Shown: piece after piece, positions 30,274 to 41,745 of the stretch
Layout: each line of letters begins with the position of its first letter
Numbering within the stretch: position 1 is the first letter of the stretch
Assembly (NCBI RefSeq): GCF_021462825.1
Contig: NZ_JAKEEB010000001.1
Coordinates: forward strand, 310,001-374,000
DNA length: 64,000 bases
DNA from: Streptomyces glomeratus
GTDB lineage: Bacteria > Actinomycetota > Actinomycetes > Streptomycetales > Streptomycetaceae
Direction: 5' to 3'
The notes under the pieces: generated by a model
The model's database searches: none
Told to the model about the DNA's origin: nothing
The model's input: the letters and a program-made list of their open reading frames with translations, nothing else
Made by a program: the position numbers and the translations under genes

Positions 30274-30296
30274 GGAATCGAGGTCTTGCGTACCGG

Positions 30297-30367
30297 CTCC
30301 CGGAGAAGGATTCGAACCCTCATTCAACGGACCAAAACCGTTTGTCCTACCCTTAGACGATCCGGGA
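30297..30367 (-). tRNA. tRNA-Gln (anticodon TTG)
   Basis: The 71-base minus-strand sequence folds as a tRNA. Acceptor arms TCCCGGA and TCCGGGA pair over 7 bp with discriminator G; the D arm contains AAGGGTAGGAC. The anticodon stem AACGG/CCGTT holds loop TTTTGGT, with anticodon TTG for Gln codon CAA. The T arm reads GAGGGTTCGAATCCTTC. The 3' CCA is not encoded. Its 5' end lies 11 bases downstream of the stop of the HTH/LAGLIDADG-like gene. Confidence 0.95.
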
Positions 30368-30378
30368 TAATGTGCGCG

Positions 30379-31257
30379 CTATGCCCGATTTGATTGATCA
30401 GCTTCGCGTGCGGACTCCACTATGCCGTACCAGGCGCCCTCGATGCGACGGTACAAGTCGGCACCCCTGAGGACTTTGATGACGAGACACCCGCGATAGG
30501 AATCGCCCACGTTCTTGCGGACGGTCTTGGGGTTGTGCCGCTTGAGGGTGGTCTTATTGAACGAGGAGCGGGTGGCGCCGACCAGGTCGGCCCAGTACTG
30601 CTCCGCGGCCGTGACGTCGGCCGCCTCGTGGATCATGACCGTGTACCGCAGGCGATCGCGCTCCACGCCCAGCAGGTCGAGCCAAGCGAGGAAGACCTGG
30701 ATCATTCCAGGGTCGCTGTTGACGAAGGTGACGTTCTCTCGGCGGGCGTAGGGCTTGTCCTTGCCGCCCTCGGCCCAGTACAGGCTCACGCCCACCAGAA
30801 ACAGTTCGCGAGGCGAAAGCTCGCCGATCGACTGCTTGGCCGCCTCCTTGGTCCGCTGTCGCTCCTCGTCTCGGATGCGCAGCCTCTCCTCCCAGCCGCG
30901 CCGGGCGATTGCTGCAGCCTCCTGGGGGCTGCGCTTCCGCTCGGGTTTCGGGAGATCCCGTACCCACAACGAGATCGAACTTTTCGAGCACCCCAGCTCC
31001 GCCTCGATCCGGTCGTACGTCCAGCCCTGGAGCCGTAGCTCCCGCGCCCTCGCCCGCAGGTCGTCCTTCGCGTTCGGGCGCTTCGTCCAGGCCGGTGGGG
31101 GCTCGCCTTTCACCAGCTGGTTGAGGATGTCGTTGTTGAAGATCTTCAGCTTGTCGCGGATCTGCCGAAGGCTGTAGCCGGCCCGGCGCAGCGCCACCGC
31201 GCGCTCCTTGAGGCCCTCGAAGTCCGCGTACTTGCCTGCCGCGTGTGCCATAGGCAT
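30379..31257 (-). CDS. HTH protein with LAGLIDADG-like C-terminal domain
   Basis: 292-residue soluble protein, function unknown. The N-terminal half holds two helix-turn-helix-like units: ERAVALRRAGYSLRQIRDKL (about 17-36) and ARELRLQGWTYDRIEAELGCSKSSISLWVRDLP (about 70-102). A charged helical linker follows. The C-terminal half has GVSLYWAEGGK, where the family's LAGLIDADG-type helix is expected, FVNSDPGMIQVFLAWLDLLG, and a basic stretch TLKRHNPKTVRKN. This resembles LAGLIDADG-type nuclease or DNA-binding domains. GGAG precedes ATG 31257; ATG 31251 is also possible. It ends 11 bases before tRNA-Gln. Confidence 0.72.
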   Translation of the reverse strand: MPMAHAAGKYADFEGLKERAVALRRAGYSLRQIRDKLKIFNNDILNQLVKGEPPPAWTKRPNAKDDLRARARELRLQGWTYDRIEAELGCSKSSISLWVRDLPKPERKRSPQEAAAIARRGWEERLRIRDEERQRTKEAAKQSIGELSPRELFLVGVSLYWAEGGKDKPYARRENVTFVNSDPGMIQVFLAWLDLLGVERDRLRYTVMIHEAADVTAAEQYWADLVGATRSSFNKTTLKRHNPKTVRKNVGDSYRGCLVIKVLRGADLYRRIEGAWYGIVESAREADQSNRA

Positions 31258-31417: not shown

Positions 31418-32734
31418 ATGACCAGGACGGGGGAAGTCCGCATGGGGGCCGGGGAAGGCCCCTGGTGGTGGGCGCGGTGGCGCAGTGCCGTGCTCGATAT
31501 CTCGCTCGCCGCGCTGTCCGCCGTGGAGTGTGCGGTCGAGGGGATCCAGTTCTCGCGGGACGCCGGCCTGCCCGTCCCCGTGGGGATGGTGTTCGGGCTG
31601 TTCACCGGTGTGACCCTGCTGCTCAGGCGCCGGTGGCCGATCGCCGTCGTGCTGGTGTCCATCGCGATCACGCCCGCTCAGATGGGGTTCCTGATGGGCG
31701 TGGTGGGGCTGTACACCCTGGCCGCCTCGGAGCTGCCCCGGCGGATCACCGCCGCCCTCGCGGGGATGTCGTTCGCCGGGATGTTCATCGTGACGTATGT
31801 GCGGGCTCATCAGGGGTTGGTCCGGGGGGATCTGTCGATCGCCGGGGGGTTCATCCCCTTCCTGTCCGTCACGACGGCGCTGGGCATGACGGCCCCGCCG
31901 GTTCTGCTGGGGCTCTACATCGGTGCCCGGCGGCGGCTGATGGAGAGCCTGCGGGAGCGGGCCGACTCGCTGGAGCGGGAGCTGATGCTGCTCGCGGAGC
32001 GGGCGGAGGAGCGGGCCGAGTGGGCGCGTAACGAGGAGCGGACCCGGATCGCCCGGGAGATGCACGACGTGGTGGCGCACCGGGTGAGTCTCATGGTCGT
32101 GCACGCCGCCGCGCTGCAGGCGGTGGCGCGGAAGGATCCCGAGAAGGCGGTCAGGAACGCCGCGCTGGTGGGGGACATGGGGCGGCAGGCGCTGACCGAG
32201 TTGCGGGAGATGCTCGGGGTGCTGCGGACGGCGGAGGGGGCCGTGGGACGGCCTGCCCGGTCCGCGGTGCCTTTGGCGGCCGTGGGGGCGGCGGCCGCGG
32301 CGGCGTCGCGGGTCGTCGTGGACTCCTCCGAGGGGCCGTGCCTGGCGGAGCTGGAGGAGCTGATCGGGCAGTCGGCCGCGGCCGGGATGGTCGTGAACCT
32401 GTCGGTCGAGGGCGAGGCGCGGTCGTATGCGCGTGAGGTCGAGCAGACCGCGTACCGGGTGGTGCAGGAGGCGCTGACCAACGTGCACAAGCATGCGGCG
32501 GGCGCGAAGACGCATGTACGGCTCGCGCATCGTGCGGCGGAGATCGCGATGCAGGTGGAGAACGAGCCGCCGCCGGAGCCGGGGTCGGCTCGGGAGGCGC
32601 GGCTGCCCAGTGGGGGCAATGGCCTGGTGGGGATGAAGGAGCGGGTCAGCGCGCTGGGCGGGGTGTTCGTGTCGGGGCCGACGGATGCGGGTGGCTTCCG
32701 GGTGTCGGCGGTGATTCCGGCCCAGGCGGCGTAG
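31418..32734 (+). CDS. Sensor histidine kinase (NarL/HisKA_3 type), orphan
   Basis: 438-residue membrane kinase. The N-terminal 170 residues hold about five hydrophobic helices. A coiled-coil linker leads to the HisKA_3 dimerisation helix RTRIAREMHDVVAHRVSLM with phospho-acceptor H216. A HATPase domain with N-box VVQEALTNVHKHA and G-box GGNGLVGMKERV follows. No response regulator gene adjoins it. Both orphan regulators of this window (10423 and 17305) are over 13 kb away. Stimulus unknown. Confidence 0.9.
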   Translation: MTRTGEVRMGAGEGPWWWARWRSAVLDISLAALSAVECAVEGIQFSRDAGLPVPVGMVFGLFTGVTLLLRRRWPIAVVLVSIAITPAQMGFLMGVVGLYTLAASELPRRITAALAGMSFAGMFIVTYVRAHQGLVRGDLSIAGGFIPFLSVTTALGMTAPPVLLGLYIGARRRLMESLRERADSLERELMLLAERAEERAEWARNEERTRIAREMHDVVAHRVSLMVVHAAALQAVARKDPEKAVRNAALVGDMGRQALTELREMLGVLRTAEGAVGRPARSAVPLAAVGAAAAAASRVVVDSSEGPCLAELEELIGQSAAAGMVVNLSVEGEARSYAREVEQTAYRVVQEALTNVHKHAAGAKTHVRLAHRAAEIAMQVENEPPPEPGSAREARLPSGGNGLVGMKERVSALGGVFVSGPTDAGGFRVSAVIPAQAA

Positions 32735-34220: not shown

Positions 34221-35249
34221 ATGACGACAGGTCGGCTCGGGCTGGGGGTACCTCCCGGCCGCCAGGCCGGAGCACCCGCCGCGCCGCCCAACGCGGCGTA
34301 CGCGGGCCAGCTCGTGCACTTTCCGGACCCGGTCCGGGCCGCTCGTCATCCGGGCGGGGTGCGCGTGGACGAGTACGGCTACCCGGACTTCTCGCCCTAC
34401 GCCCGTGCGGCAGCGGAGATCGCGGAGCCGCCGGAGGGTTTCGGTGTGGACGAGTTGCGGCTGACCGACTACGTGTCGGCGAACGCGGCGCTGGCGGCGT
34501 CGGGGCACGAGTTGTGGGACACGGTTCCGGCGGTGGCGACGCCGCACGGCTGGACGTGGCACCACGTCCGCGGGTCGCGTCGGCTGGAGCTGGTTCCGGT
34601 CGAGGTGAAGGCGTTGCTGCGGCACCACGGCGGGATCGCGACGGCGGGTGTCGACCAGGGCAAGCGGGGGACGCGGCCGTTGCAGGAGACGAGGCCGGCG
34701 CACTTCGGGCTGCCGAAGTCCTCGGTCGCGGTGACGGAGCAGCAGGTTCAGGGCGTCGAGGAGGATCTGGGGTACCGGCTGCCGGGTGCGTACCGGTCGT
34801 TCCTGAAGGCTGCGGGTGGCTGTGCGCCGGTGGGCGTGGCGCTGGACGCGGAGTTGGGGCTGCTGGTCGACCAGCCGTTCTTCACGGTGCGGGACGAGGC
34901 GGCGGTCAACGACCTGGTGTATGTGAACAAATGCCTGCGGGACCATCTGACGAAGGACTATCTGGGCGTCGGTTTTGTGCAGGGCGGTCTGCTGGCCGTG
35001 AAGGTGAAGGGTGACCGGGTCGGCTCGGTCTGGTTCTGTGCGTACGACGACGCGCGTGATGTGGATGCGTCGTGGACGCCGGCCGAGCGGGCGGAGCGGC
35101 TGTTGCTGCCGTGTGGGGACGACTTCGACGCGTTCCTGGCCCGGCTCGCGGGCAGTCCGCCGGAGTTGGGGACCGTGGCGAATCTGATGGTGGACGGCGG
35201 GTTCGCGCGTGTGGTGCCGGTGTCGTCGGCGTCCGGGGCAGGGGAGTGA
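34221..35249 (+). CDS. WHH-type nuclease fused to a SUKH (SMI1/KNR4) domain
   Basis: 342-residue soluble protein with two domains. Residues about 25-165 look like a WHH-type HNH/ENDO VII nuclease: YGYPDFSPYARA, then GWTWHHVRGSRRLELVPVEV with W113-H114-H115, and HHGG further on. Residues about 170-290 are a SUKH domain: EEDLGYRLPGAYRSFLKAAGG, GLLVDQPFFTVRDE, VGFVQGGLLAVKVKGDRVGSVWFCAYDDARD. Normally such a nuclease is a toxin and SUKH its separate immunity protein; here both are one chain. No signal peptide or transmembrane helix. ATG 34221 has CAGGGGGAA upstream. The next gene starts 9 bases after its stop. Confidence 0.75.
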   Translation: MTTGRLGLGVPPGRQAGAPAAPPNAAYAGQLVHFPDPVRAARHPGGVRVDEYGYPDFSPYARAAAEIAEPPEGFGVDELRLTDYVSANAALAASGHELWDTVPAVATPHGWTWHHVRGSRRLELVPVEVKALLRHHGGIATAGVDQGKRGTRPLQETRPAHFGLPKSSVAVTEQQVQGVEEDLGYRLPGAYRSFLKAAGGCAPVGVALDAELGLLVDQPFFTVRDEAAVNDLVYVNKCLRDHLTKDYLGVGFVQGGLLAVKVKGDRVGSVWFCAYDDARDVDASWTPAERAERLLLPCGDDFDAFLARLAGSPPELGTVANLMVDGGFARVVPVSSASGAGE

Positions 35250-35258
35250 GTTCGGGCG

Positions 35259-38054
35259 ATGGTGACGTTCGCGCAGGCGCAGGAGCGCGCGGAAGAGTGG
35301 ATCAACGGGGACGTTCCGTCGTATCAGCATCGTGAGGTGCGGGTACGGGAGTTCGGGCTCGGGTTCGTGGTGTGGGCGGAGGACCGGGCCGAGGGGCCGC
35401 GGTCGGACGGGGGCGCGCAGCGGCTCGTCATCGCCCGTGACAGCGGTGAGGCGACGCTGTGGCCGGGGCTGCCGGTGGGTGAGGTGATCCGTCGTTACGA
35501 GGAGGAGTACGGGGTGAGGGAGGCGCCGGCTCGGCAGGCGCCGGCGCCCGCTGCCCGAGGCGATCTGAACCAGACGTCGTTCCTGTTGAGCCCGCCGGAG
35601 TGGCTCCAGGAGGAGGCGGACCGGCGGGGGGCTCCGGATCGGCCGCAGGGTGGCGGGGTGCCGTCCGCGCCGCCGTCCGGGGCGACCGCGGGGGCGCCGG
35701 GCGGCGTCGGCTCTTCTCCGGGCGCGGCTGCCGGGAGTGCGCCGGTTGCGGCTGCCGGGAATGCGCCGGTTGCGGCTGCCGGGAATGCGCCGGTTGCGGC
35801 TGCCGGGAATGCGCCGATCGCGGCTGCCGCCGCCGCTTCCGGGCCCTCGGTGGCTTCCGGCTCCTCGGAAGCCTCGGGGGCTGGTGTCCCGGGGGTCTCG
35901 GGTACGACGTCTGTGCCGGCGTGGCCCGCGGCCGGGGGCGGGGACGAGGTGCGGGACGCGGTGCCCGGCGTGCCCGAGGGGGCGACGCCGTGGGCGGGGA
36001 CCGACACCAACGCCGACGGGGGCGAGGACCGTTCGGTGCCGCTTCCGGCGACCGTGATCGCGCCGCCGCTGAGCGACGCCGACGACGGTACGCCGCCGGG
36101 CGCGTCGGCGCCGGACGCGAAGATCACGCTGCAGGGCGGGCCGGGTGTGCCTCAGGGTGTGCCCGGGCCGGGTGTGCCTCAGGGCGGGCCGGGTGTGCCG
36201 CACGGCGGGCCGGGTGTGCCGCAAGGCGGGCCGGGTGTGCCGCAGGGGCCGCCTCCGCCTCCCGGACCGCCGCCGCCGGGTGGCCCGCAGCCTCCCGGTG
36301 TGCCCCAGGCTCCAGGTGTGCCGCAGATGCCGAACGTGCCGCAGGCTCCAGGTGTGCCGCAGATGCCGAACGTGCCGCAGGCTCCAGGTGTGCCGCAGAT
36401 CCCGAACGTGCCGCAGGCTCCGGACGGTTCGTCCGGGCCGGGTCGGCGGCTCGCGCCGAACGCCGAGGACATCGCCGACGCGGCGACCAGCAAGGCGGCT
36501 CCGCCGCGGGCCGCGCGCGCGGGTGGTGCGCCGCCTCCGCCGGGCGCTCCTGGCGTGCCCGGGGCGCGGCCGGGCGCGACGCCTCAGCCCTCGGCGCCGG
36601 GCGCTCCGGGGGGCGGCTACGTGCCCACGCAGCTCGTCTCGCAGCTCGGCCCGGAGGGCCCCGGTGCCCCGGTGGCCCCGGGCACTCCGCCGCCGGGTGC
36701 GCCGCAGCCGCCTGCCGGTACGCCGGGTGGTGTGCACCACGCGGCCACGATGCTCGCCGGTCCGCCCGTCGGTCCGGGCGTGCCCCCGGGCACTCCGAGC
36801 GCGCCCAACCCTCCGGGCCCGCCGAACCGTCCGGGCGTGCCGGGTGCTCCCTCGGCTCCCGGTGTCCCGGCCGCTTCCGGGATCCCGGCTGCCCCCGGCG
36901 CTCCGGGTGCCCCTGGTGTCCCGGCTGCCCCCGGTGCCGTGCACCACGCCGAGACCGTGCTGGCCGGACCGCCTGTGGGAGGTCCGGGGGTGCCCCCGCC
37001 GCCCGGTGTTCCGGGTGCGGCGCCTGCCGATCCGGGGCCGGTGCCCGGGCAGCAGCCGTCGTACGGTTATCCGCAGAGTGTGCCGACGGTCGGCCCCGGC
37101 TATCAGGCCGTGCTGCGTTACCGCGCTCCGGACGGCTCCGAGCAGCAGCTGATCCGGCGTTCGGCGCCGGGCACCCCGCACCCGGAGTGGCAGATCTTCC
37201 ACGAGCTGCGCGGCCTGAACGTTCCGCCGGACCAGGTGCTCGAGCTGCACACGGAGCTGGAGTCGTGCGAGCTGCCGGGTGCCTACTGCGCGCGGATGAT
37301 CCGGGAGAACTGGCCGCAGGCCCGGATCGCCAGCATCGCCCCGTACGGGACCGACCATGCCTCGCGTCAGCAGGGTATGCAGCAACTGCTCGCTCATCAG
37401 GGTGAGTTGCACCAGGTCGCGGATGGCCCTGCGCGCCCGGGTCCGGTGCGTGCGCCACTGCCGCCGGTGCAGCCCGCGCCGCCGATCCCGCCGGAGGGCA
37501 TCGCGCAGGAGATGGCCGCCGCCTTCGGGCCGGGGGTCTTCCGGTTCGAGCAGGCCGCGGTCTCCCGGCAGGGCGTGCCGCCGATCGTGGCGCAGCTTCT
37601 GGTGGTGGCGGGGCTGCCGGTCGACATGGGTCCGTTCTTCTGGGCGCAGGCCCAGCCGGGCCGTCCGGTGCCGACGCTGGCCGAACTGGCGCAGGAGCGC
37701 GGGCTGCAGCCGGCCGCGGACGCGGGCTCGTACCTCGTCCTCGGCAGCGACTTCGGCAAGGCGATCTGTGTGCAGTACGGCACGGCGAACATCGTCGCGG
37801 TTCCCGTGGAGGCCGGGCCCGGCGGTGTTTCCGCACCGCCGCAGTACGTGAACACGGGGCTGCCCGAGTTCGTGCGCTGTCTGGCGCTGCTCGGCCGGAT
37901 GTGGCGGCTGAGGTACGGGCTCAACCAGGAGCAGGCGGGCCGCTGGACCGTCGACTTCCAGGCGCAGCTGGCCTCCCTCGATCCGGCGGCGCTCGGTTCG
38001 CCGGACAGCTGGTGGTCGGTGCTGCTCGAGCAGATGTGGGACGGTCTGCTGTGA
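35259..38054 (+). CDS. Imm35-like / Pro-rich / XOO_2897-like deaminase / SUKH-4 fusion
   Basis: 931-residue soluble multidomain protein. Residues 1-90 resemble the Imm35/YrhB immunity domain (AQERAEEWIN, VREFGLGFVVWAED, RLVIARDSGEATLWPG). Residues about 95-605 are a Pro/Gly/Ala-rich repeat linker. Residues about 610-700 resemble an XOO_2897-type deaminase: RAPDGSEQQLIRR, FHELRGLN, then H664-T-E666 and C670-x6-C677 as zinc site. Residues about 745-931 resemble SUKH-4 (PPIVAQLLVVAGLPVDMGPFF, YLVLGSDFGKAICV, GLPEFVRCLALLGRMWRLR). It is co-directional with the WHH-SUKH gene and likely in its operon. Confidence 0.7.
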   Translation: MVTFAQAQERAEEWINGDVPSYQHREVRVREFGLGFVVWAEDRAEGPRSDGGAQRLVIARDSGEATLWPGLPVGEVIRRYEEEYGVREAPARQAPAPAARGDLNQTSFLLSPPEWLQEEADRRGAPDRPQGGGVPSAPPSGATAGAPGGVGSSPGAAAGSAPVAAAGNAPVAAAGNAPVAAAGNAPIAAAAAASGPSVASGSSEASGAGVPGVSGTTSVPAWPAAGGGDEVRDAVPGVPEGATPWAGTDTNADGGEDRSVPLPATVIAPPLSDADDGTPPGASAPDAKITLQGGPGVPQGVPGPGVPQGGPGVPHGGPGVPQGGPGVPQGPPPPPGPPPPGGPQPPGVPQAPGVPQMPNVPQAPGVPQMPNVPQAPGVPQIPNVPQAPDGSSGPGRRLAPNAEDIADAATSKAAPPRAARAGGAPPPPGAPGVPGARPGATPQPSAPGAPGGGYVPTQLVSQLGPEGPGAPVAPGTPPPGAPQPPAGTPGGVHHAATMLAGPPVGPGVPPGTPSAPNPPGPPNRPGVPGAPSAPGVPAASGIPAAPGAPGAPGVPAAPGAVHHAETVLAGPPVGGPGVPPPPGVPGAAPADPGPVPGQQPSYGYPQSVPTVGPGYQAVLRYRAPDGSEQQLIRRSAPGTPHPEWQIFHELRGLNVPPDQVLELHTELESCELPGAYCARMIRENWPQARIASIAPYGTDHASRQQGMQQLLAHQGELHQVADGPARPGPVRAPLPPVQPAPPIPPEGIAQEMAAAFGPGVFRFEQAAVSRQGVPPIVAQLLVVAGLPVDMGPFFWAQAQPGRPVPTLAELAQERGLQPAADAGSYLVLGSDFGKAICVQYGTANIVAVPVEAGPGGVSAPPQYVNTGLPEFVRCLALLGRMWRLRYGLNQEQAGRWTVDFQAQLASLDPAALGSPDSWWSVLLEQMWDGLL
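35724..35819 (+). repeat. Four tandem 24-bp repeats in the linker coding region
   Basis: Four copies of a 24-bp unit starting GCGGCTGCCGGGAATGCG encode repeated AAAGNAPV octapeptides. Copies 2 and 3 are identical; 1 and 4 differ by a few bases. Near-identity at DNA level points to recent expansion or strand slippage. Confidence 0.9.
36170..36413 (+). repeat. PGVPQ-type tandem repeats in the linker coding region
   Basis: Several 21-bp units (GGCGGGCCGGGTGTGCCGCA-like, about 36170-36245) encode GGPGVPQ heptapeptides. Three near-identical 36-bp units (36306-36341, 36342-36377, 36378-36413) encode QAPGVPQMPNVP. The collagen-like glycine-proline pattern predicts an extended or polyproline-helical linker. 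Confidence 0.88.
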
Positions 38055-38128: not shown

Positions 38129-38418
38129 TTCTGTTCCCCCTTTCGGGCCGGTTCGGGGTTCGCCTCGGGTTCGCCTCTGCTTCCGTTCGTGTGTCCGTGT
38201 GCACGTGGAGCGGTTGTTGTGCCGTGTGCGCGCCGTGGTGTGCGACGGCGTGCGGGGCCTGCGGTGCGACCGCGCGCGCGATACCCCGCGTGCACCTCGT
38301 GACCCATCCCTGTCCATTGCTTATGCGCGGAGTGTCGTGTTATGAACACTTCCGTCTGATCCATAAGGATGTGCGCGAATCGTCGCTTCCTGTGGGTCAG
38401 GTGGAGAGGGGTTCCACG
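38129..38418 (+). promoter_or_regulatory. Upstream region of the coiled-coil gene
   Basis: 290 bases with no credible gene. The first part is GT/GC-rich; 38320-38395 is locally AT-rich (TTATGAACACTTCCGTCTGATCC) and is the likely promoter zone. GAGAGGGG ahead of ATG 38419 is the ribosome site. Confidence 0.4.
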
Positions 38419-39315
38419 ATGAGCAGCGCATCGGGGTCGCCGCACGGCTTTGTGTCCGTGCGGCGCGGCTACCGTCCCGACCAGGCCGACGCGTATACCG
38501 CGGCCCTCTCGCGGGAACGTGACGGCGCCTGGGAGCGCGCCGCCCGGCTGACCGTGCTGGCCAAGGACATGGAGGCCCAACTGGCGCGGCTGCACGAGAC
38601 GGTGGCGCAGCTGCCCCCGCAGACCTATGAGGCCCTCGGTGACGGGGCCCGTCGGGTGTTCGGCCTGGCGCAGGAGGAGGCCCAGGCCGTACGCGAGGGT
38701 GCCCGGCGGGACGCGGCGCGGCTGGTCGCGGAGGCGGAGGAGGAGGGGCGGCGGGTGCGGGAGGCCGCGCAGGCGTACGCCGACGAGGTGCGGGGGGAGG
38801 CCGAGGAGCGGATCCGTACCCGGCTGCTGGCGGCCCGTGCCGAGGCCGACGACGTACGGGTCACGGCGCGGCGCGAGGTCAAGGAGGGGCGCGCGGAGGC
38901 GCTCGCCGCGTTGCGGGAGGTGCGTCAGCGTACCGAGGCCCTGCTCGTCGAGCAGGAGCGGGAGCAGGCCGAGCTGTGGGAGGCCGAGGAGCGCGCGGAG
39001 GCCGAGCGGCTGGCGCAGATGGAGGCGTCGGAGGCGGAGCGGGTGGCGCAGGCGGAGGCCGCTTTGGCGGAGGCGGAACGGGCGCTCGCCGAGGCCGGGG
39101 AGTCGGCGCGGCGGGTGCAGCGGGACGCCCAGGCACGTGCCGCGGAGCTGGTCGCCGAGGCGCGGCTGCGGGAGGACCGGATCGCGCGGGAGACGGAGAG
39201 GGTGCTGCGGGAGCACGGCGAGGCGTGGGACCGTGTGCAGGCCCAGATGGACCATGTGCGCAACAGCCTCGCCATGCTGACGGGCCGGGCTCCCGCGGAG
39301 CGGGAGGCCCCTTGA
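38419..39315 (+). CDS. Long coiled-coil protein, DivIVA/FilP-like
   Basis: 298-residue protein, of a group often labelled cellulose-binding in Streptomyces annotations. The N-terminus GFVSVRRGYRPDQADAYTAALSRERDGAWERA resembles the DivIVA membrane-binding start (xVRRGYRPDQVDAY). From about residue 40 to 285 it is nearly continuous Ala/Glu/Arg-rich heptad coiled coil with no membrane segment or signal peptide. Streptomyces relatives (DivIVA, Scy, FilP) organise tip growth and cytoskeleton; a similar structural role is inferred. ATG 38419. Confidence 0.82.
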   Translation: MSSASGSPHGFVSVRRGYRPDQADAYTAALSRERDGAWERAARLTVLAKDMEAQLARLHETVAQLPPQTYEALGDGARRVFGLAQEEAQAVREGARRDAARLVAEAEEEGRRVREAAQAYADEVRGEAEERIRTRLLAARAEADDVRVTARREVKEGRAEALAALREVRQRTEALLVEQEREQAELWEAEERAEAERLAQMEASEAERVAQAEAALAEAERALAEAGESARRVQRDAQARAAELVAEARLREDRIARETERVLREHGEAWDRVQAQMDHVRNSLAMLTGRAPAEREAP

Positions 39316-41474: not shown

Positions 41475-41601
41475 TCCGTTTCTCCTTGCAGGCTCGGGTC
41501 CGTGGCGGCGGACCGCAGGGAGCGGTGGGCGGCGACGCACGCTACTCGCGGCGATCGGGGCTGTGCGGGGTTTTCACCAAACTGGGCGGTCGGTATCCGC
41601 T

Positions 41602-41673
41602 TACTTCACCGACTACTTCACCGACTACTTCACCGACTACTGCACCGACTACGTCATCGACTACTTCCTCGAG
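41602..41673. repeat. Six tandem 12-bp repeats
   Basis: Six contiguous copies of TACTTCACCGAC, the first three identical and the last three diverged (TACTGCACCGAC, TACGTCATCGAC, TACTTCCTCGAG). They lie in the 298-base gap between the MFS exporter stop and the DUF485 start. Confidence 0.9.
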
Positions 41674-41697
41674 TGCTGCTTTTCCCGGCTCTCTCCT

Positions 41698-41745
41698 CGG
41701 CTGCTTCAACGGCTGACGCAACGGCTGCTTCATCGGCTGCTTCAA
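41698..41745. repeat. Four tandem 12-bp repeats, second array
   Basis: Four copies of CGGCTGCTTCAA (the second reads CGGCTGACGCAA, the third ends in T), 24 bases after the first 12-bp array but with a different unit. A minus-strand frame of 67 codons (41542-41745, TTG start) crosses both arrays, encoding KQPL/KQPM and VVGE repeats. It has no good ribosome site and mixed third-position GC, so I do not call it a gene. Confidence 0.85.

What the first reader, a model, noticed from the sequence alone, without database searches (positions are those of the whole stretch)
35259..38054. 931-residue Imm35-linker-deaminase-SUKH-4 protein with expanding proline-glycine repeats
Two immunity-type domains flank a deaminase-like domain, separated by some 500 residues of Pro/Gly repeats. 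The DNA repeats (24, 21 and 36 bp) are nearly identical, so the linker is probably length-variable between strains, like phase-variable or adhesin linkers.
Basis: partly seen in the sequence, partly recalled or inferred. Interest (0 to 1): 0.65.

Follow-up and report, generated by a model that had tools for sequence, protein, structure and literature searches.

The report
Conserved Streptomyces self-immune deaminase, motif-bearing linker
Nearly every Streptomyces carries this protein, which joins a toxin-type base-changing enzyme to its own likely inhibitor and carries a long floppy linker whose length varies but which keeps a fixed set of short threonine motifs; its job is unknown.

Summary
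The 931-residue ORF is real: XOO_2897-type deaminase (PF14440, residues 612-713, E 4.5e-35) and SUKH-4 (PF14435, 749-925, E 4.8e-46). "Imm35" fails every test made. Linker length does vary: 428-675 residues in 70 close orthologues, 315-581 in 32 others. The 24/21/36-bp units are multiples of three, so their slippage keeps frame; phase variation is unsupported.

Two things were missed. First, the gene is core to its family: matches (E<=1e-20) in 225 of 227 Streptomyces, 3 of 3 other genera of the family, 0 of 15 other genomes of the order, with conserved toxin-immunity neighbours. The putative zinc/catalytic tetrad is invariant in 121 of 121 orthologues; 7 of 7 short-linker paralogues examined lost three of its four residues. 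Second, the linker keeps ordered islands, mostly T-x-[L/F] motifs (5.86 per linker against 0.87 in shuffles), within fast-changing spacers.

Best reading: an intracellular, self-inhibited nucleic-acid deaminase on a multivalent docking scaffold. Substrate, trigger and partner are unknown.

The parts
35259..38054 (+). whole gene, 931 aa: N-domain, linker, XOO_2897-type deaminase, SUKH-4
35259..35522 (+). N-terminal domain (residues 1-88), no known family; AF2 alpha-4beta-alpha, pLDDT 78 for residues 1-95
35523..37091 (+). disordered-type P/G/A-rich linker (residues 89-611) with islands and spacers
35559..35642 (+). island 1 (residues 101-128, DLNQTSFLL core; T106)
   Evidence: DLNQTSFLL in 71 of 71 linkers; island in 71/71 and 32/32
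35724..35829 (+). 24-bp tandem array
35979..36074 (+). island 2 (residues 241-272, GATPWAGTDTN...PATVIAPPLS; T265)
   Evidence: 71/71 and 32/32
36114..36137 (+). altered remnant of island 3 (residues 286-293, DAKITLQG), running into the 21-bp array; placed by eye from the sequences
   Evidence: island 3 in 58/71 and 31/32
36131..36247 (+). 21-bp tandem array
36300..36421 (+). 36-bp tandem array
36459..36515 (+). island 4 (residues 401-419, DIADAATSKA core)
   Evidence: 68/71 and 21/32
36612..36668 (+). island 5 (residues 452-470, GGYVPTQLVS core; T457)
   Evidence: 69/71 and 26/32
36729..36782 (+). island 6 (HHAATMLAGPP; T497)
   Evidence: 67/71 and 31/32; pattern found only at this gene in 21 genomes
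36936..36989 (+). island 7 (HHAETVLAGPP; T566)
   Evidence: 69/71 and 30/32
37092..37397 (+). XOO_2897-like deaminase (612-713) with H641, E643, C670, C677
37503..38033 (+). SUKH-4 domain (749-925)
34221..35249 (+). WHH-nuclease-SUKH-1 fusion ending 9 bases before the main gene (start codon inferred)
   Evidence: PF14414, PF09346
33455..33979 (-). YwqJ-type deaminase, divergent
   Evidence: PF14431
32812..33543 (-). SUKH-3 protein (ORF as listed; true start uncertain)
   Evidence: PF14433

Best explanation
A resident, intracellular nucleic-acid (or nucleotide) deaminase of polymorphic-toxin origin, held in check by its own C-terminal SUKH-4 domain in the same chain, and tethered through a long disordered linker to partners that recognise its ordered T-x-[L/F] islands. 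Shown: domain order; invariant putative tetrad; near-universal presence in the sampled Streptomycetaceae with conserved neighbours; islands kept while spacers turn over; short-linker paralogues that lost the tetrad. Inferred: that SUKH-4 inhibits the deaminase in cis; that the substrate is nucleic acid; that the islands are docking (possibly phospho-threonine) sites whose occupancy places or releases the enzyme; that WHH-SUKH-1 and YwqJ/SUKH-3 next door are parallel effectors of one stress, anti-phage or developmental response.
For: Profiles. Tetrad in 121 of 121 orthologues, lost in 7 of 7 short-linker paralogues. Deaminase the least variable part measured: mean identity 96%, dN/dS 0.071 against 0.127 SUKH-4 and 0.446 SUKH-3. 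Core distribution. Neighbours in the 80 loci: WHH-SUKH1 70, YwqJ 67, SUKH-3 67; the misses are loci cut by contig ends plus L066. Active-site residues of the WHH and YwqJ neighbours kept. T-x-[LF] 5.86 against 0.87 in shuffles, above all 100 shuffles in 95 of 103 linkers, reversed pattern not enriched.
Against: No activity, inhibition or partner shown. AF2 of deaminase+SUKH-4 is poor (pLDDT 48), so no interface. No PADLOC hit for the main gene or its SUKH/toxin neighbours. The identity and dN/dS sets were chosen by similarity of this very region, which lowers its values. Paralogues that lost the tetrad keep SUKH-4, so SUKH-4 has some use without an active deaminase. Islands 4 and 5 are weaker in the divergent set (21/32, 26/32), and a more distant genus keeps only island 1.
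Confidence: 0.42

Rival explanations
1. A housekeeping deaminase (RNA, nucleotide or small-molecule) that uses SUKH as a structural or regulatory module, with no toxicity and no conflict role.
For: Core distribution and strong constraint; tetrad invariant.
Against: Its neighbours are further toxin-type nuclease/deaminase-SUKH pairs, and XOO_2897 deaminases are listed as toxins countered by SUKH (PMC3482391, passage).
Confidence: 0.28
2. An exported polymorphic toxin that carries its immunity domain.
For: Domain families are those of polymorphic toxins.
Against: No trafficking domain recognised by Pfam; the toxin part is the most conserved, not variable.
Confidence: 0.1
3. A polyimmunity or scaffold protein in which the deaminase is only a binding module.
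For: Paralogues keep the architecture after losing the tetrad.
Against: Tetrad invariant in 121 of 121 orthologues.
Confidence: 0.12
4. A phase-variable or adhesin-type linker.
For: Tandem arrays and fast spacer turnover. In 8 of 40 second-set genes N-domain and deaminase lie in different frames.
Against: Main units are multiples of three. In 4 of those 8 (L106, L129, L130, L132) the islands need more than one frame change, which looks like assembly error; the second set was partly picked for short frames. 70 of 80 first-set loci are in frame, 9 are cut by contig ends, 1 lacks the N-domain. No export domain recognised.
Confidence: 0.05

Closest known systems
XOO_2897-like toxin deaminases with SUKH immunity (Zhang et al. 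2012, PMC3482391; passages seen)
   Same: Same deaminase and SUKH families; that association is listed there.
   Different: Here fused in one chain with an N-domain and a motif linker, core to a bacterial family, toxin part least variable, no recognised trafficking domain.
Short-linker paralogues in the same genus (G000:C34 and L195-L200)
   Same: N-domain, deaminase-type domain and SUKH-4 in the same order.
   Different: About 18-29 residues between N-domain and deaminase, and H, C, C of the tetrad replaced.
Imm35 (PF15567)
   Same: Small alpha+beta domain by prediction.
   Different: No profile match and 2.9% in profile-profile comparison.
Phospho-threonine/FHA docking sites of actinobacterial Ser/Thr kinase substrates (recalled, not tested)
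   Same: Repeated Thr-centred hydrophobic motifs in a disordered chain.
   Different: Preference is at +2 (L/F); hydrophobic at +3 is only weakly enriched (3.54 against 2.48); no FHA or Ser/Thr kinase domain appeared among the neighbours scanned; phosphorylation untested.

Membership tests
XOO_2897-like deaminase (PF14440) | profile match above cut-off | tested here: met
   120.2 bits, cut-off 27
XOO_2897-like deaminase (PF14440) | HxE and C...C residues as in ordinary homologues (L201, L202: HPE, C-x6-C) | tested here: met
   121 of 121 orthologues; homologues
XOO_2897-like deaminase (PF14440) | deaminase fold | tested here: inconclusive
   model pLDDT 48; top Foldseek rows are APOBEC-type deaminases but none at E<=0.001
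XOO_2897-like deaminase (PF14440) | deaminase activity | not testable with these tools
   needs assay
SUKH-4 (PF14435) | profile match above cut-off | tested here: met
   157.5 bits, cut-off 25.5
SUKH-4 (PF14435) | neutralises the linked toxin domain | not testable with these tools
   inferred only
Imm35 (PF15567) | profile match of the N-domain | tested here: not met
Polymorphic toxin | variable C-terminal toxin part | tested here: not met
   deaminase is the most conserved part measured
Polymorphic toxin | N-terminal trafficking domain or export signal | tested here: inconclusive
   Pfam finds none; the N-domain is of unknown family and no signal-peptide program was run
Phase-variable repeat locus | repeat units whose slippage changes frame | tested here: not met
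   24, 21 and 36 bp
FHA/phospho-threonine scaffold | Thr motifs with hydrophobic +3, phosphorylated | tested here: inconclusive
   +2 L/F strongly, +3 weakly enriched; phosphorylation not testable

The most novel reading that the evidence does not exclude
Streptomycetaceae carry a family-wide, self-inhibited base editor on a multivalent disordered scaffold: a polymorphic-toxin deaminase turned into a controlled cellular tool (editing its own RNA or DNA, or killing the cell in phage infection or development), switched by occupancy of its T-x-[L/F] motifs.
Probability: 0.15. Interest if true: 0.85.

Novelty: new variant of a known kind. Interest (0 to 1): 0.55.

Why it matters
Toxin deaminases are usually variable weapons and a source of base editors (recalled). 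A family-core copy with an intact putative active site and a built-in likely inhibitor suggests a domesticated editor with a physiological role in the main antibiotic-producing genus, and the motif islands give a concrete handle for finding its partner. Of the tags SCO3115-SCO3120, which I take to cover the S. coelicolor locus (recalled, not checked), the held library names only SCO3119 (3 papers): in the two Streptomyces papers whose passages I saw it is a histidine kinase, listed as an orphan in one.

Tried and rejected
Imm35 for the N-domain: rejected. N-domain fold: AF2 pLDDT 78; Foldseek gave nothing at E<=0.001; VIA best Z 5.6 (YebF), with a T6SS immunity protein at Z 4.2, in the range the tool calls common; left unassigned. 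PDB sequence searches: nothing at E below 0.2. Deaminase/SUKH-4 interface by AF2: pLDDT 48, unusable. PADLOC: 0 hits for 6 of 7 proteins scanned, and a weak capH hit (E 0.0085) for the HTH gene at 30379-31257. NCBIfam gave only a low-complexity-type match for the main protein, far under its cut-off (18.7 bits against 1700). Plasmid tblastn: 4 records with distant deaminase matches, none covering 80% of the query; N-domain 5 weak matches at E 0.2-0.7. Codon-position test on islands: change mostly at third positions, but all motifs except DLNQTSFLL were picked by amino-acid pattern, so it is partly circular and not relied on. Spacer distances involving islands 3 and 4 include misplacements (negative values) and are not used.

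Literature searches of the held library: XOO_2897+deaminase 3 papers; SUKH-4+Streptomyces 0; SUKH+deaminase+immunity+fused 55, 20 listed, many unrelated; toxin-immunity+deaminase+Streptomyces+polymorphic toxin 6; SCO3115 to SCO3120, 3 (one is about a virus); FHA domain+phosphothreonine+Streptomyces 8, 7 listed; KNR4+Streptomyces 5; SUKH+Streptomyces whole word 5. No listed title names this protein; papers outside the library were not searched. I saw passages only of PMC3482391, PMC9739842 and PMC13170358; the rest as listings with abstract starts.

Full report
OBSERVATION. The ORF at 35259-38054 (+) is 931 aa. Pfam gives XOO_2897-deam at 612-713 (E 4.5e-35) and SUKH-4 at 749-925 (E 4.8e-46). 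TRF finds 24-, 21- and 36-bp arrays. The N-terminal 'Imm35' label fails every test made: no Pfam family at E<=10, no Imm35 hit for any of 36 orthologous domains, no PF15567 match at E<=0.001 in the own genome although the same search rang in 10 of 41 genomes, hhalign probability 2.9% against 9 Imm35 members. AF2 models the domain as alpha-4beta-alpha (pLDDT 78). Its profile rings in 58 of 61 Streptomyces; besides the orthologue it finds six second copies at E 7.7e-16 to 1.5e-14, all of which I examined and found to be short-linker deaminase-SUKH-4 paralogues, and three marginal hits (E 1.7e-5 to 7.8e-4) not examined.

SURROUNDINGS. The stop of a WHH-nuclease-SUKH-1 fusion lies 9 bases before the main start. 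Divergently lie a YwqJ-type deaminase and a SUKH-3 gene. Downstream is a gene with a DivIVA match just under the Pfam cut-off (24.9 against 28 bits); upstream is a histidine kinase. In the 80 loci, tblastn finds WHH-SUKH1 in 70, YwqJ, SUKH-3 and the kinase in 67 each, the DivIVA-like gene in 80. The 10 loci without WHH-SUKH1 are the nine whose contig ends inside the main gene plus L066, which has no recognisable upstream part; three more (L018, L068, L076) are too short upstream for the rest. The gap from WHH-SUKH1 stop to main start is 6-10 bases in 69 of 70 loci and -53 by my measure in one. WHH motif W, H, H and the H, H of LRHHGG are kept in 71 of 71 (the following G in 70), and YwqJ C-A-E and P-C..C in 68 of 68, window included.

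DISTRIBUTION. Query: deaminase+SUKH-4. 189 of 199 Streptomyces match at E<=1e-3; by my reading of the rows 183 have E<1e-100. Order sample, E<=1e-20: 225 of 227 Streptomyces, 3 of 3 genomes of other genera of the family, 0 of 15 other genomes of the order. Phylum sample, E<=1e-10: 12 of 396, all Streptomyces. Some misses are assembly gaps: G030 lacks the C-terminal match but has the N-domain 1.2 kb from a contig end. G010 keeps WHH-SUKH1 and part of the N-domain but no deaminase or SUKH-4 within the 8 kb fetched, so a real truncation or loss seems to occur. Vertical descent is inferred from prevalence and synteny; no tree was built.

CONSERVATION. In the window plus the 80 best loci (kept for similarity of the C-terminal part, so biased in its favour) mean pairwise identity is 96% for the deaminase stretch and 92% for SUKH-4 (81 sequences each) and 88% for the N-terminal 110 residues (71). 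Median dN/dS: deaminase 0.071, N-domain 0.104, SUKH-4 0.127, WHH-SUKH1 0.148, symporter 0.213, kinase 0.236, YwqJ 0.328, SUKH-3 0.446, DivIVA-like 0.462. H641, E643, C670 and C677 are kept in 121 of 121 (window, 80 loci, 40 further genomes). Two ordinary homologues (L201, L202) show the same HPE and C-x6-C pattern, which with the helix starts in the weak AF2 model is my basis for the assignment. The own paralogue (G000:C34, 446 aa) and six others (L195-L200) have the same three domains with about 18-29 residues between N-domain and deaminase, and P, S or A, and T in place of H, C and C, the E being kept. So the short form looks catalytically dead and the long form intact. Beside the own paralogue is a protein with an AAA_16 match under the cut-off.

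LINKER. Length 428-675 aa in 70 first-set orthologues and 315-581 in the 32 in-frame genes of a second set of 40 that I chose for divergence and partly for short frames. All 20 listed pairs with over 95.5% identity of the last 963 bp differ in length, for example by 45 residues at 98.1%; one gap (L002/L004) holds a visible tandem duplication. The window's units GNAPV, QAPGVPQMPN and GGPGVPQ occur in none of the other 102 linkers. Yet short islands persist: DLNQTSFLL in 71 of 71. Scoring more than 5 above the best of 40 shuffles of the same linker (first set of 71; second set of 32): island 1 71, 32; island 2 71, 32; island 3 58, 31; island 4 68, 21; island 5 69, 26; island 6 67, 31; island 7 69, 30; the islands 1-5 detected are in order in 71 and 32. 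The consensus came from the same 71, and islands 6 and 7 resemble each other, so the second set is the fairer test. The common element is T-x-[LF]: 5.86 per linker against 0.87 in shuffles, above all 100 shuffles in 95 of 103; the reversed pattern is not enriched (1.03 against 1.35) and T-x-x-hydrophobic only weakly (3.54 against 2.48, 0 of 103 above all shuffles). A DNA pattern for HHAxT[MV]LA hits 16 places in 21 genomes (9 of 13 Streptomyces, 0 of 8 others; backward control 0); by coordinates all 16 fall in this gene. An orthologue of a sister genus (L209) keeps islands 1, 3, 5, 6 and the end of 2 recognisably; a more distant one (L210) only island 1. In the window, island 3 is altered where the 21-bp array begins.

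FRAME. 70 of 80 first-set loci are in frame, 9 are cut by contig ends and L066 has no N-domain. In 8 of 40 second-set genes N-domain and deaminase lie in different frames; in 4 of these (L106, L129, L130, L132) the islands need more than one frame change. That looks like assembly error in GC-rich repeats, but true frameshifts are not excluded. The named units are multiples of three, so changes in their copy number keep frame.

MECHANISM AND COMPARISON. XOO_2897 deaminases with SUKH immunity are a known association (PMC3482391, passages). Unusual here: one chain, core to a family, toxin part the least variable, and a motif scaffold in front of it. I favour a self-inhibited intracellular deaminase with docking motifs (0.42); a housekeeping deaminase is the main rival (0.28). 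The AF2 model of deaminase plus SUKH-4 is too poor for any interface claim; its top Foldseek rows are APOBEC-type deaminases and an SMI1/KNR4 structure is at rank 16, all with E above 0.05.

Noticed in passing
31418-32734: Histidine kinase (HisKA_3) conserved beside the locus (67 of 80 loci) with no response regulator recognised in the neighbouring genes scanned; probably the orphan kinase SCO3119 of S. coelicolor (inferred).
   Followed up: partly
38191-39315: DivIVA-like coiled-coil gene right after the locus, present in 80 of 80 loci but the fastest-changing of those measured (dN/dS 0.462).
   Followed up: partly
G000:C34:40588-41910 (L082, L194): Paralogue with N-domain, tetrad-less deaminase and SUKH-4, next to a protein with an AAA_16 match under the cut-off; a possible pseudoenzyme system.
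   Followed up: partly
L211 (G010): WHH-SUKH1 and part of the N-domain kept, deaminase and SUKH-4 not found within 8 kb: a possible natural loss.
   Followed up: no
L106, L119, L124, L127, L128, L129, L130, L132: Copies with N-domain and deaminase in different frames; several need more than one frame change, likely assembly errors.
   Followed up: partly
about 41563-41720: Spurious-looking ORFs here read as short repeats (YFTDYFTDYFTDY), pointing to a small tandem repeat between the DUF485 gene and the MFS gene.
   Followed up: no
30379-31257: HTH protein beside tRNA-Gln (30295-30367) with a weak capH-like PADLOC match (E 0.0085).
   Followed up: no
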